Shown here in pieces: positions 10,984 through 16,645 of a stretch of DNA of 64,000 bases. The stretch is taken from assembly GCA_026413755.1 (NCBI GenBank), contig JAOAKH010000008.1:1-64000 (forward strand). The letters are read 5' to 3'. Under the pieces are notes generated by a model. The model was not told where the DNA came from. It worked only from the letters and a program-made list of their open reading frames with translations, and made no database searches. Position 1 is the first letter of the stretch. Every line of letters begins with the position of its first letter. The stretch comes from Acidilobaceae archaeon (lineage in GTDB: Archaea; Thermoproteota; Thermoprotei_A; Sulfolobales; Acidilobaceae). Position numbers and translations under genes: made by a program.

Positions 10984-12309
10984 CTACACCCCGCCCCTCT
11001 CTAAGAACTCCTCCACGGCCTCCTCCAGCGTGGGGCCCTCTACTATGTCCACCTCGTATAAGACCCTCACTATAGGCTTGTCCAACTTTACTAGCCTCGA
11101 AAGGTCTATGGGGGTGCCGGAGACTATGACGTCTGCAGGGACCCTTCTCAGCGTCTCCTCTAAGTCCCTCACCTGCTCTCTCGTGTAGCCGGTGCTTGGG
11201 ATCACCTTGCTCATGTGCGGGTACTCCTTGTACATGTCTGCAATGACTCCTACTGCATATTGCCGCGGATCTACGATCTCGGCAGCGCCGTACTTTAGGG
11301 CCGCCACGTATCCAGCTCCGTAGGGTGCCTCGCCGTGAGTCACCGTTGGGGAGTCCTCCACCACGGCTACCCTCTTCCCCCTGATCAGCTCCGGCTCCTC
11401 TACCATGACGCTGCTAACGGCGAGCGAGATCTTCGCCTTTGGATTAACAGACCTCACGTTCCTCTTTATTCTCTCCACATCCTCCCTCCTAGCGTGGTCT
11501 ACCTTGTTTATTATGACGAGGTCCGCTAGCCTCACGTTAACTTCCCCTGGGAAGCTCCCTACTTCCTGCCCGGGCCTCAGCGCGTCCGCTACTGTTATGT
11601 AGTAATCGGGCTTCACGAAGGGCCAGTCGTTGTTCCCTCCGTCCCAGAGGATCACATCTGCGTCCTTCTCCGCTAGCCTGAGCACTTCCTCGTAATCTAT
11701 GCCGGAACATACCTTGTAGCCCCTGGAAATGTAATGCTCGTACTCCTCCCTCTCCTCTATAGTGACGCCCCTCTTGTCGAGCTCCTCCACGCTCTCAAAA
11801 CACTCAGCGCTCTCTTCAAAGCCCCTGTAAGCCATGGGGTGTCTCACGGGAACTACTCTGTAGCCCCTGGAGGAGAGTATCTTAGCTATCTTTCTGGAAA
11901 CGCTGCTCTTCCCGGCGCCCGTCCTTACGGCTGTGACGGCTATCACCGGCTTCCTTGCCTTGAGCATCGTCTCGGAGGGGCCGAGGATCATGAACGAGGC
12001 GCCGGCAGAGAGAACTCTGCTCAGTATCCTTCCTACTTGGCTATACGGGAGGTCGCTGTAGGAGAGGACGGCTATGTCTACTTTCATCTCCCTTATGAGC
12101 TCCTCTAGCGAGTTCTCTGGCAATATGGGTATCCCCTCTGGATATAGCTTGCCTGCTAGGTGAGGCGGGTAAACCCTCCTCCCCATCCCAGGGATCTGTG
12201 AAGCAGTGAAGGTCACCACCTCGTACTCATCGTTGTTCCTGAAAAACACGTTGAAGTTGTGGAAGTCCCTGCCTCCGGCCCCCAGGATAACCACTCTCTT
12301 CCTTCTCAC
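10984..12309 (-). CDS. Cyclic 2,3-diphosphoglycerate synthetase-like P-loop protein
   Basis: Family named for the methanogen enzyme that cyclises 2,3-diphosphoglycerate at the expense of ATP. An N-terminal Rossmann-like domain (VILGAGGRDFHNFN at 7-20) is followed by a P-loop NTPase domain with VRTGAGKSS at 128-136 and INKVD downstream, which looks GTPase-like. 441 aa agrees with the family. GTG 12309 starts it. Being fused in one unit with carbamate kinase hints at a role around carbamoyl phosphate or another acyl phosphate rather than cDPG as thermoprotectant (inference). Confidence 0.8.
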   Translation of the reverse strand: MRRKRVVILGAGGRDFHNFNVFFRNNDEYEVVTFTASQIPGMGRRVYPPHLAGKLYPEGIPILPENSLEELIREMKVDIAVLSYSDLPYSQVGRILSRVLSAGASFMILGPSETMLKARKPVIAVTAVRTGAGKSSVSRKIAKILSSRGYRVVPVRHPMAYRGFEESAECFESVEELDKRGVTIEEREEYEHYISRGYKVCSGIDYEEVLRLAEKDADVILWDGGNNDWPFVKPDYYITVADALRPGQEVGSFPGEVNVRLADLVIINKVDHARREDVERIKRNVRSVNPKAKISLAVSSVMVEEPELIRGKRVAVVEDSPTVTHGEAPYGAGYVAALKYGAAEIVDPRQYAVGVIADMYKEYPHMSKVIPSTGYTREQVRDLEETLRRVPADVIVSGTPIDLSRLVKLDKPIVRVLYEVDIVEGPTLEEAVEEFLERGGV

Positions 12310-12423: not shown

Positions 12424-14754
12424 TTGGGGAATGGGTTGGCAAGGAAGCCCAGTCTGCTCGCAGAGTTCGTGATAATGATAGACAGGTATTCTACTCCCCT
12501 GACGATCCTCATACTCCTCCTTATAATCTCAGTAGGCGGCTACCTGAGGATGCTGCCTGCCATAAAGTATGGCCTCGAGCTTGACGAAGCAGACCCCTGG
12601 ATCATGTATTGGATAGCGGAGCAGCTATACCAGCACGGCCTCTTTAACTTCGAGTCCATATCCGACTCGAAGCTTTTCTGGTACCCTTATGGCAAGAACT
12701 TCCTCACGCGTGAGTACATAGGGACTAGCTGGGTAGCTGCTGCCACGTACCCCTTGGTGAAACCCTTCGGCCTGTCCCTCAGGGAGTGGATAGCCCTCTC
12801 CCCCGTCATTGCAGGCCTCCTCACGTCCCTCGTGGGCTTCCTCATAGCATACGTCATAACGCGCTCTAAGCTGGGGGCCCTCACCACGGCGGCTCTCTTC
12901 TCCCTGTTGCCTGGAGCCATAGGGAGGAGCACCGTAGGCTTCGTGGAGAAGATGGTAATTGCCTCGGTGCTCATAGCTCTCCTCTACCTCTTCTTAGCTC
13001 TCTCGCTGAGGAGCGAAGGCAGAGCCAGGCTCCTATATGCTGCCCTTGCAGGCCTCGCTGCAGGCCTCACGCCCTTCTTCTGGGGAGGCTACCACTTCGT
13101 TACCATATCGTTGGCCCTCATATTCCTCCTGGACCTAGCGGTGAGGGGCACAGCGGATCTAGAGAGGCTCAAGGTATATGGGATAGTCACCTCCCTCTTC
13201 GTGCTGGTGGCCCTGGCTTCGCCGGTGCTAGGGTATAGGTACTTCGTGACCAGCCTCGGCATGGGGCTCACAGCCTCCTTCCTAGCATACACGGCGGCAG
13301 TCCTCTGGGAAAGGCTTGGGCTCTCTGAGAGGCTGTTCCCTCTTAGCAGGCCCTTCTTCCTCTGGGTCTTACTAGCAGCATTCGTCTCAGCTCTAGCGCT
13401 GATCCTAACCGAGACCATAGGAGTGCCCGGGAGGATCTTACTAGCCCTTGGCATAAGGGAGTTCAGCCCTCTCGCCGAGAGCGTAGCAGAGCACACGGGC
13501 GTGAGCTGGGGAGAGCTGTTCAGGGAGCTCGGCATTCCCTTCATGATCGTGGCACTCGGCACCATATACTACATGTACCGCATATACTCTGGCAGGAGAG
13601 ACGTTACAGATCACATTGTCCTGAGCCTCTTTCTCATGTCGTTCCTCATGATGTACGCGGCTAAAAACATGGCGTACTTCCTCCAGATGGCCTCCTTCTA
13701 TGTCTCCATAGCTGCAGGAATAGCTGTCGGGGCGTGGATGGCTGGGGAGAGAGTGGTCACGGAGGTGAAGAGGAAGGTTATGTCCGTGGACGAAGTGAGG
13801 TTTGCGGTGGCACTGTTGATAGTACTCTTCGTGGTCGGGGGCTCCACATATTACGCTAGGAACAGCTATGAAGTCAACTCCTATAGGGCTCCCCAGATCC
13901 TTACCGCAGGGCTCTCTGCTTATTCCATGGGCGGAGAGATCGTCGTGCCAGTAAACGACGCCTGGCAGAGGGCCCTAGATTACCTCAGGACTAACACTAG
14001 CGAGGACTCCCTCGTGGTAAGTTGGTGGGACTATGGCTACTGGATATCGGTGGGAGCTGGGAGGGCTACCGTGGCAGACGGCTCGACGCAAAACGAGACC
14101 CAGATCAGGATCCTTGCCAGGATCCTCACCGGGAACGAGGACGAGGCGTCGGCCCTCTTGCCGCTCTTCCGCGCCAAGCCTAACAAAACGTATCTGGTCT
14201 TTTACGAGGCCTTCATATTCATTCGGCCTGAGAACTCCACGATGGTGTACGGCCTCCCGATCCCCAGTAGCCAGAAGCAGGGCAACTCGTACGTTGTCAT
14301 GTACGGCATGGCGGACTTCCCGAAGTCCTTCCAAATGCTCAGGATAGGCTACAGGATAGACTCCTTCGCAGAGAGCGTCTTAGGCACAAAGTACTCCTCC
14401 CAGACCATCTCGGGCCAGATTAGGTCCTATCACTTCCCAGCGCTGGTGGGCAGCCCTGATGCGAACGTGAGGCTAACCCTTAACAGCCTCCTCTACAGGC
14501 TCAGCATGGAGGGACTGACGCACATACCTAGCAAGGGCCTGGTGAGGAGTTGTTCCGTTTTTAACAACGTGAGCTTCGTAATGCCCTCTGCATACGATCC
14601 CGCAACAGGCCAGCTGTTGCCAGCAATACCTCTAGGCCTAACGAAGAGGTTCTCGCCAGAAGCGATAATAGTCTCTTGTCATAAGAAGGACGAGGCCTTC
14701 GGTTCCATCCAGGCGCAGGCGGTGGTGGTCTTCATATACAGGTGGCTGGGCTAG
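12424..14754 (+). CDS. aglB: Oligosaccharyltransferase AglB (STT3 family)
   Basis: Membrane enzyme moving a lipid-linked glycan onto Asn in N-X-S/T sites on the outer face of the membrane. The first half is multi-spanning (about 12 segments) with the acidic LDEADP motif at 53-58 in the first external loop. The C-terminal soluble domain has WWDYG at 534-538, which binds the Ser/Thr of the acceptor sequon. 776 aa is within the archaeal range. TTG 12424 follows GGAGG by about 9 bp. Glycan precursors could come from the UDP-sugar genes at the window end and the GT-C protein at 45068. Confidence 0.93.
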   Translation: MGNGLARKPSLLAEFVIMIDRYSTPLTILILLLIISVGGYLRMLPAIKYGLELDEADPWIMYWIAEQLYQHGLFNFESISDSKLFWYPYGKNFLTREYIGTSWVAAATYPLVKPFGLSLREWIALSPVIAGLLTSLVGFLIAYVITRSKLGALTTAALFSLLPGAIGRSTVGFVEKMVIASVLIALLYLFLALSLRSEGRARLLYAALAGLAAGLTPFFWGGYHFVTISLALIFLLDLAVRGTADLERLKVYGIVTSLFVLVALASPVLGYRYFVTSLGMGLTASFLAYTAAVLWERLGLSERLFPLSRPFFLWVLLAAFVSALALILTETIGVPGRILLALGIREFSPLAESVAEHTGVSWGELFRELGIPFMIVALGTIYYMYRIYSGRRDVTDHIVLSLFLMSFLMMYAAKNMAYFLQMASFYVSIAAGIAVGAWMAGERVVTEVKRKVMSVDEVRFAVALLIVLFVVGGSTYYARNSYEVNSYRAPQILTAGLSAYSMGGEIVVPVNDAWQRALDYLRTNTSEDSLVVSWWDYGYWISVGAGRATVADGSTQNETQIRILARILTGNEDEASALLPLFRAKPNKTYLVFYEAFIFIRPENSTMVYGLPIPSSQKQGNSYVVMYGMADFPKSFQMLRIGYRIDSFAESVLGTKYSSQTISGQIRSYHFPALVGSPDANVRLTLNSLLYRLSMEGLTHIPSKGLVRSCSVFNNVSFVMPSAYDPATGQLLPAIPLGLTKRFSPEAIIVSCHKKDEAFGSIQAQAVVVFIYRWLG

Positions 14755-14798
14755 GCCCGCTATAACCCTCCCAGTCTGCAAGTACGGAGGGGGCCTTC

Positions 14799-15218
14799 TT
14801 GGGCAAGGAGACGAGGGCAGCAGTGCTGAAAGCCCTTGCAGAGATAAGGAGAGCTCAGGTAAAGGTGAGGCTCCTTGGAGAGAGGATGAGGGGGTTGGAC
14901 GAGGAGTCCGCCCTCAGGCTGCTTGCCCTTTGGGAGCTCTTGGAGAGGCTGGCCTTGAGGCTGGAGACAATATCAGTTCTCGGGGTCGCCTCCCCTGACC
15001 TCATGAGGGGCCCTCTAGCGCTCATGATCGCCATGGAGGCCCTCAAGGCCTACGCTCCGCCTGACGTAAGGTATATGCTCTCGACGATAGAGAGGAGCGT
15101 GGAGACGATATATTCTGGGCTCCCTGAGCCTCGACTCGCTGCAGAGGAGCTGAGGGAGGAGGCGGAGCAGATAGTGAGAGAGGCCCTTGAGGCCGCGCGG
15201 AAGAGGGCAAAGGCGTAG
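14799..15218 (+). CDS. Short ESCRT-III/CdvB-like helical protein
   Basis: All-helical 139-residue protein. From memory of crenarchaeal CdvB paralogues, the middle ([10 protein letters not shown], about residues 52-61) matches their conserved RLET-x-x-x-LG segment. It is followed by the expected Pro-containing helix and the I-x-x-x-V-x-x-I helix, and a tail of [16 protein letters not shown] type like their EAEKIL region. The N-terminal hairpin is only about half the usual length and there is no winged-helix-binding tail. CdvB proteins polymerise on membranes in division and vesicle budding. TTG 14799 follows GGAGGGGG. It precedes serS by 53 bp. No search was possible, so the family call is an inference. 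Confidence 0.55.
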
Positions 15219-15271: not shown

Positions 15272-16645
15272 TTGGCGGTCTGGAGCGTCTTATCCCTGCT
15301 CAGGGAGAGGCCTGAAGAGCTGAAGAAGCACGTGGCGAAAAGGCTGCTGGACCCCGCGATAGTGGACGAAGCATACAAGCTGGACCTGGAGTGGAGAAGG
15401 CTGCAGACAGAGGTAAACGAGATGAGGCATAGGCACAACGTCATAACGAAGAGCATAGCAAAGGCGGGGGAGGCGGAAAGGGCTAGGCTAATACAGGAGG
15501 CAAAGGAGGTGCTAGAGGCGCTGAAGGTCCTCGAGGCAAGGCTTGCAGAGGTAGAGGCTAAGAGGAACGAGGCCCTCTTCTCTCTTCCTAACACAGTGGA
15601 CGACGACGTGCCGGTGGGGGACGAGAGCGCCAGCTTGCCCATAGAGTTCTGGGGGAGACCGAATGTCTGGACAGGCTATCTAGAGCAGTTCAAAGAGCAG
15701 ACTGAGAGATACGGCTTCAAGGTGGACTACGAGCTCATACACTGGAAGCCCGTGGGACATGCGGATATGCTAGAAGAGGTGCTCGGCCTAGGCAACACTC
15801 TGAAGGCAGGAGAGGTGGCAGGCTCAAGGTTCTACTACCTTTTCGACGATCTCGTGTGGCTCGACTTCGCGCTTCTGCTCTTCGCTATAGATAGGCTTAC
15901 CGCCAAGGGCTATAGGCTGGTGCTGCCGCCCTATATGCTGAGGCACAGGGTAATCTCAGGCGTGGTGGACCTCCAGGCCTTCAAGGACGCGATATACAAG
16001 ATAGAGGAGGAGGACCTGTACCTAATAGCTACTGCAGAACACTCCCTCGCTGCCCTCTACTACGGGGAGGAGATATATGACGACGAGCTGCCAATAAGGC
16101 TAGTCGGCGTGAGCCCATGCTTCAGGAAGGAGGCCGGCGCCGGCAGCAAGGATTTGAAGGGGATATTCAGGGTTCACCAGTTCCACAAGGTGGAGCAGTT
16201 CGTCTACTCTAAGCCGGAGGAGAGCAGGACCTTGCACGAGGAGATCATCAACAATGCAAAGGAGCTTTTCCAGGAGTTGGGGCTGCCGTACAGGATAGTC
16301 AACATAGCCTCTGGGGACCTCGGGGCTCCTGCCGTGAAGAAGTACGACCTTGAGGTCTGGATGCCTGCGCAAGGCAAATACAGGGAGATGGTGAGCGCGA
16401 GCAACGTGACCGACTGGCAGGCGTACAGGCTGGGCATAAAGATGATAAGGAGAAAGGGAATGACGAGGGAGTACGTGCATATGCTAAACGCCACTGCAAT
16501 AGCTTCTACGCGGGTCATAACTGCCATATTGGAGAACTACCAGCAGCCGGACGGCAGCGTGATCGTGCCGAAGGTCCTCAGGAAGTACCTCGAGCCCTTT
16601 GTGGCTGCGCCAAAAGATGTCATACTGCCACGCAAAAGAGTATAA
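15272..16645 (+). CDS. serS: Seryl-tRNA synthetase
   Basis: Charges tRNA-Ser. The N-terminal long coiled-coil arm (about 30-105) that holds the tRNA variable arm is present. Class II motif 2 ([15 protein letters not shown]) and motif 3 (a conserved Arg in [13 protein letters not shown]) follow. This is the common SerRS type, not the methanogenic one. 457 aa is normal. TTG 15272 is preceded by CTGGGTGG. Confidence 0.95.

What the first reader, a model, noticed from the sequence alone, without database searches (positions are those of the whole stretch)
14799..15218. A half-size ESCRT-III/CdvB-like protein next to serS
Seen: a 139 aa all-helical protein whose middle carries RLET-x3-LG, a Pro-containing helix and an EAEQI-type tail, in the order I remember from crenarchaeal CdvB paralogues. 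The alpha1-alpha2 hairpin before it is only about half the usual length and the wH-binding tail is missing. Inference: a reduced ESCRT-III member, possibly a regulator or capping partner of the division or vesiculation polymers. It would be outside the usual cdvABC locus.
Basis: partly seen in the sequence, partly recalled or inferred. Interest (0 to 1): 0.6.

Follow-up and report, generated by a model that had tools for sequence, protein, structure and literature searches.

The report
Short ESCRT-III protein beside aglB
A small archaeal protein really is a member of the membrane-cutting ESCRT-III family, but with the tip of its defining helical hairpin trimmed off and its gene kept next to the protein-glycosylation gene aglB, which makes it a natural candidate for a modifier of the archaeal cell-division or membrane-budding machinery.

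Summary
Window 14799-15218 (+) is a real 139-codon gene (TTG start behind a GGAGG motif). Its family is under purifying selection (dN/dS 0.03-0.25). AlphaFold2 gives a confident five-helix ESCRT-III fold (pLDDT 93.6), and the first eight Foldseek hits in the PDB are all CdvB2 filament chains. Profile comparison finds CdvB1/2, CdvB3 and CdvB with 98.5, 97.2 and 96.5% probability; a control gives 0.2%. What is unusual is the alpha1-alpha2 hairpin. A segment that is 71 residues long in all 31 CdvB and CdvB1/2 proteins measured is 42 here, as if about 14 residues were cut from each helix at the tip. The MIM2 motif, the winged helix and the N-terminal amphipathic helix are also missing. The gene is not an isolated oddity: 44 other genomes of two families carry a short relative, and aglB lies upstream on the same strand in 40; serS is a looser neighbour. 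The same genome also has cdvB-cdvC and a CdvB1/2. I read it as a Snf7-core-only, CdvB3-like accessory subunit that joins and limits CdvB1/2 polymers. The identity is secure; the capping mechanism and any tie to AglB are inference.

The parts
14799..15218 (+). Short ESCRT-III (CdvB-like) gene, 139 aa; alpha1 residues 3-30, alpha2 35-61, alpha3 66-83, alpha4 88-106, alpha5 115-138
14785..14792 (+). Shine-Dalgarno-like GGAGGGGG, 6-13 bases before the TTG start
   Evidence: sequence
14889..14906 (+). Trimmed tip of the alpha1-alpha2 hairpin (residues 31-36); relative to CdvB1/2 about 29 residues are missing around here
14958..14984 (+). RLETISVLG motif (residues 54-62) at the end of alpha2, the best conserved CdvB signature
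12424..14754 (+). aglB (STT3-type oligosaccharyltransferase), conserved upstream neighbour on the same strand, 44 bp away
   Evidence: Pfam PF02516 and PF21436; synteny
15272..16645 (+). serS, downstream neighbour on the same strand in part of the family
   Evidence: TIGR00414 442 bits

Best explanation
Shown: the gene encodes an ESCRT-III core protein (helices alpha1-alpha5) that belongs outside the CdvB and CdvB1/2 clades, among the Snf7-only CdvB3-like paralogues. It lacks the hairpin tip, MIM2, winged helix and N-terminal extension, keeps a basic alpha1 and an acidic C-half, and is conserved downstream of aglB. Inferred: it is an accessory subunit of the CdvB1/CdvB2 polymer. The basic alpha1, RLET turn and alpha3-alpha5 would let it bind to the membrane-side lattice or to the end of a CdvB1/2 filament. 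The shortened hairpin cannot span as many neighbouring subunits, so it would cap, shorten or locally soften the filament. Having no MIM2, it would not recruit CdvC itself and would leave with its full-length partners. Confidence: identity as ESCRT-III about 0.95; CdvB3-like ancestry about 0.7; the capping or modifying mechanism about 0.4. The figure below is for the whole statement.
For: Fold: AF2 pLDDT 93.6 for the window protein and 85.9 for a relative; in both, the top eight PDB matches are CdvB2 filaments 9s97-9s99, prob 1.00, TMq 0.67-0.74. Profiles: CdvB1/2 98.5% E 2e-15, CdvB3 97.2%, CdvB 96.5%, control 0.2%. Hairpin segment: 71 residues in 31 of 31 CdvB and CdvB1/2, 62-70 in Sulfolobaceae CdvB3, 50 in family f7, 42-55 in family f1, 42 here. 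Charge dipole kept: pI 10.2 in the N-half and 5.1 in the C-half, alpha1 net +6. Phylogeny: grouping with CdvB1/2 rejected, AU p = 0.0013. Selection: dN/dS 0.03-0.25. The partners exist in the same genome: CdvB, CdvC, CdvB1/B2. Sulfolobus CdvB3, the nearest described class, interacts with itself and with CdvB1 and CdvB2 in yeast two-hybrid (PMC5840170).
Against: No interaction or polymerisation data exist for any member. Several sampled family members lack the gene yet have CdvB and CdvB1/2, for example the g5 genomes, four of which are at least 92% complete, so it is not needed for division. The stable link to aglB rather than to a cdv gene may point to another role. The window protein also lacks the N-terminal membrane-binding segment that CdvB paralogues need (PMC12818579).
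Confidence: 0.45

Rival explanations
1. It is simply the local CdvB3: it polymerises with, or temporarily stabilises, the CdvB1/2 ring as proposed for CdvB3, and the short hairpin changes little.
For: Snf7-only architecture as in the CdvB3 class (PMC8970359). NCBIfam CdvB3 is the model matched by most members, 16 of 17. A clade with Sulfolobaceae CdvB3 is not rejected, AU p = 0.08.
Against: 25 bits against a cut-off of 170. Sulfolobaceae CdvB3 sits in a different locus and keeps a 62-70 residue hairpin segment. It groups with the f2 paralogues rather than with X in the free tree.
Confidence: 0.3
2. It has left cell division and become an accessory of AglB: a membrane-associated ESCRT-III relic that organises the oligosaccharyltransferase or couples S-layer glycoprotein export to membrane shape.
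For: aglB is upstream on the same strand in 40 of 44 relatives across two families, even where serS has been inverted or separated. Fast sequence evolution and variable hairpin length suggest relaxed polymer constraint.
Against: Four members are not next to aglB. The aglB of one genus is only about 26% identical to the window's, yet X is kept. Neighbourhood alone does not show interaction, and serS is just as close here.
Confidence: 0.2
3. An unrelated helical protein, or a chance ORF, that only resembles CdvB.
For: Pfam PF03357 (Snf7) does not reach its cut-off anywhere in the genome, and helical bundles give loose structural matches.
Against: Independent fold, profile and phylogenetic evidence. 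PF03357 also fails its cut-off in Sulfolobus acidocaldarius, a known ESCRT-III organism. The unrelated control serS scores 0.2%. dN/dS is 0.03-0.25.
Confidence: 0.02

Closest known systems
CdvB3 (ESCRT-III-3), Sulfolobaceae, NCBIfam NF041009
   Same: Snf7 core only, no MIM2, no winged helix; significant profile similarity over the whole core
   Different: Hairpin segment 62-70 residues against 42; locus between an lpd-like and a PhoU-like gene, not aglB; equivalog cut-off not met; one clade neither shown nor rejected
CdvB1/CdvB2 (ESCRT-III-1/-2), NCBIfam NF041005; PDB 9s97-9s99
   Same: Same five-helix fold, RLET motif, EA-rich alpha5, basic alpha1
   Different: CdvB1/2 have a 71-residue hairpin segment, an N-terminal amphipathic region and a C-terminal MIM2-like FPELP; separate clade (AU p = 0.0013)
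CdvB (ESCRT-III), NCBIfam NF041008
   Same: Snf7 core; profile match from alpha2 onward
   Different: CdvB has MIM2 and a winged helix and lies with cdvC; this genome has its own copy at C45:71 kb
aglB-linked short ESCRT-III of family f7 (for example L163, L155, L165)
   Same: Short hairpin, Snf7-only, directly downstream of aglB
   Different: Fixed 50-residue segment; conserved N-terminal hydrophobic-basic M-[LFVW]-[FW]-R-rich motif that the window protein lacks; remnant FP after alpha5 in some

Membership tests
ESCRT-III / CdvB superfamily | Five-helix Snf7 core fold | tested here: met
   AF2 plus Foldseek, top eight hits CdvB2, prob 1.00 (second member)
ESCRT-III / CdvB superfamily | Sequence-profile homology to known members | tested here: met
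   hhalign 96.5-98.5%, control 0.2%
ESCRT-III / CdvB superfamily | Long alpha1-alpha2 hairpin (71-residue reference segment, no indels in 31 CdvB and CdvB1/2 proteins) | tested here: not met
   42 residues; hairpin present but trimmed at the tip. Limits the claim that it works as a normal polymer subunit, not its homology
ESCRT-III / CdvB superfamily | Basic N-half, acidic C-half | tested here: met
   pI 10.2 and 5.1
ESCRT-III / CdvB superfamily | Pfam PF03357 above gathering score | tested here: inconclusive
   Not reached here, nor in S. acidocaldarius, a known carrier
ESCRT-III / CdvB superfamily | Polymerisation on and remodelling of membranes | not testable with these tools
   Needs biochemistry
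CdvB3 (NF041009) | Snf7 core only, no MIM2 or BWH | tested here: met
   Sequence ends at alpha5
CdvB3 (NF041009) | Curated equivalog score of at least 170 bits | tested here: not met
   25.2 bits; not filed as CdvB3
CdvB3 (NF041009) | One clade with Sulfolobaceae CdvB3 | tested here: inconclusive
   Free tree places CdvB3 elsewhere; AU p = 0.08
CdvB1/2 (NF041005) | MIM2-like proline motif after alpha5 | tested here: not met
   Absent
CdvB1/2 (NF041005) | One clade with CdvB1/2 | tested here: not met
   AU p = 0.0013
CdvB (NF041008) | C-terminal winged helix, locus with cdvC | tested here: not met
   Absent; a separate CdvB with an HTH domain lies beside cdvC

The most novel reading that the evidence does not exclude
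A branch of ESCRT-III that has given up the long polymerising hairpin and works together with the archaeal oligosaccharyltransferase AglB at the membrane, coupling surface-glycoprotein production to membrane remodelling: a non-filamentous ESCRT-III with a new job.
Probability: 0.15. Interest if true: 0.85.

Novelty: new variant of a known kind. Interest (0 to 1): 0.5.

Why it matters
Hairpin length is otherwise fixed in crenarchaeal CdvB and CdvB1/2 (31 of 31 identical here). A natural series from 71 down to 42 residues is a ready-made test of what the hairpin tip does in filament assembly and curvature. The role of the Snf7-only CdvB3 class is unsettled: its deletion is severe in S. acidocaldarius and silent in S. 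islandicus (PMC11796394). If the aglB link is functional, it would join the archaeal division or vesiculation machinery to S-layer glycosylation. The relatives occur in cultivable genera (Aeropyrum, judged from contig length and my own knowledge).

Tried and rejected
Pfam Snf7 search of the genome: nothing, but its control shows the model is too insensitive. phmmer against PDB sequences: only a designed helical binder at E = 0.46. Structure prediction used only window and the search for related loci sequences, as its rule states. Considered and rejected: chance ORF (dN/dS), unrelated helical family, CdvB1/2 paralogue that lost its tail, Sulfolobaceae cdvB3 synteny, direct aglB adjacency of the full-hairpin paralogue in L174 (a 423-codon frame lies between). 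Literature on an aglB-ESCRT-III link or a shortened hairpin: nothing specific among the held papers. Makarova 2010 is not held, so an earlier listing of these genes cannot be excluded.

Full report
Observation. The ORF lies where described: 14799-15218, + strand, TTG start, 139 aa. GGAGGGGG stands 6-13 bases upstream. aglB ends 44 bp before it and serS begins 53 bp after it. dN/dS between close relatives is 0.03-0.25, and 0.21 against the nearest relative at 54% identity, so this is a selected protein-coding gene.

Fold. AlphaFold2 with six aligned family members gives pLDDT 93.6 and pTM 0.89 with helices 3-30, 35-61, 66-83, 88-106 and 115-138. Foldseek against the PDB ranks eight chains of the Sulfolobus CdvB2 filaments (9s97-9s99) first, all with probability 1.00 and TM-score (query) 0.67-0.74, followed by CdvB and the IST1/CHMP1B family among weaker hits. 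No E-value is below 0.001, which I take to be usual for a short helical protein, so a second member (L118) was folded separately: pLDDT 85.9, and again all eight CdvB2 chains first, then closed CdvB.

Sequence. The protein alone hits NCBIfam CdvB3 at E = 1.1e-5. Of 17 relatives, 16 hit CdvB3 and 13 hit CdvB1/B2. Profile comparison gives CdvB1/2 98.5% (E 2e-15), CdvB3 97.2%, CdvB 96.5% and the f7 relatives 98.1%. The control, the neighbouring serS family, gives 0.2%. Pfam Snf7 fails its cut-off here, but also in S. acidocaldarius.

What is unusual. Between two anchor residues (A12 in alpha1 and R54 of RLET) CdvB and CdvB1/2 have exactly 71 residues in 31 of 31 proteins. Sulfolobaceae CdvB3 have 62-70, another Snf7-only group (f2) 68, the f7 relatives always 50, and the f1 relatives 42-55. 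The window and its nearest relative have 42, the fewest. The alignments place the deletion at the hairpin tip, with the base of both helices kept, as if about 14 residues had been removed from each helix. The absolute figures depend on the alignment of alpha1, but the within-group constancy does not. MIM2 and winged helix are absent. The N-terminal amphipathic segment that CdvB, CdvB1 and CdvB2 need for membrane binding (PMC12818579) is also absent in the window protein, although many relatives have a short hydrophobic-basic N-terminus. The charge dipole of ESCRT-III is kept.

Distribution and neighbours. By my count, 33 of 48 sampled genomes of the window's family (f1; named relatives are mostly Acidilobaceae) and 12 of 20 of family f7 carry a short member. 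In 40 of 44 members other than the window, aglB is upstream on the same strand, usually within about 160 bp. serS follows on the same strand in 19, all in f1, and is inverted in two. In L065 and L067 aglB and serS are adjacent with no such gene, which looks like loss. Sulfolobaceae CdvB3 lies elsewhere. The window's own genome also has a CdvB with a winged helix directly followed by CdvC, and a CdvB1/B2, all on contig C45, so the core ESCRT-III/Vps4 part of the Cdv system is present; CdvA was not searched for.

Phylogeny. In IQ-TREE trees of 91 and 86 proteins, CdvB plus CdvB1/2 form one well-supported side (99/99 in the first). The f1 short proteins form a group (98/88 in the first tree, 83/59 without long rows), and f7 forms another (100/100). 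Placing the f1 proteins with CdvB1/2 is rejected (AU p = 0.0013). One clade of f1 plus f7 is not rejected (p = 0.18), nor is f1 plus Sulfolobaceae CdvB3 (p = 0.08). Branches are long, so deeper relations are unsure.

Mechanism. Shown: ESCRT-III core, trimmed tip, missing recruitment motifs, aglB linkage, selection. Inferred: it co-assembles with CdvB1/2. CdvB3 of S. acidocaldarius binds itself, CdvB1 and CdvB2 in yeast two-hybrid (PMC5840170), and a Snf7-only subunit has been suggested to stabilise the ring because it cannot engage CdvC (PMC8970359). A shorter hairpin should reach fewer neighbours in a lattice with 38 A subunit spacing (PMC12818579; my inference), which favours a capping or softening role. 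The gene is dispensable at family level, since several relatives lack it. The rival, an AglB accessory, rests on synteny only.

Novelty. Snf7-only CdvB proteins are known. I found no description of the shortened hairpin series or the aglB linkage in the held literature, but older comparative work (Makarova 2010) could not be read. I rate it a new variant of a known kind, with moderate interest because it makes the function of the hairpin tip, and of the CdvB3 class, directly testable.

Noticed in passing
L065:4118-4501 and L067:4425-4501: aglB and serS adjacent with no ESCRT-III gene between them, suggesting loss of the short ESCRT-III in these Acidilobaceae relatives.
   Followed up: partly
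L007, L008, L014, L144, L146 (one genus, probably Aeropyrum): aglB beside the short ESCRT-III is only about 25-27% identical to the window's aglB, against 33-74% in other genera of the family, yet the neighbourhood is kept.
   Followed up: no
L163:3071-3553 and the other family f7 members in alignment A8: Conserved N-terminal M-[LFVW]-[FW]-R-x-[RK]-R-rich motif before alpha1, a possible membrane anchor resembling in character the start of eukaryotic CHMP2.
   Followed up: partly
L175, L205, L206, L238-L241 (family f2); L172-L174 (families f4, f10): Other Snf7-only CdvB paralogues with nearly full-length hairpins in other loci; the f2 group falls with Sulfolobaceae CdvB3.
   Followed up: partly
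L259:1441-2199: The genome's main CdvB scores only 39.5 bits against the NCBIfam CdvB cut-off of 370, so CdvB of this family would be missed by that model's curated cut-off.
   Followed up: no
window 10984-12309 (-): GTPase-like protein (weak cobW match) divergently oriented upstream of aglB; its homologue is also upstream of aglB in several relatives.
   Followed up: no
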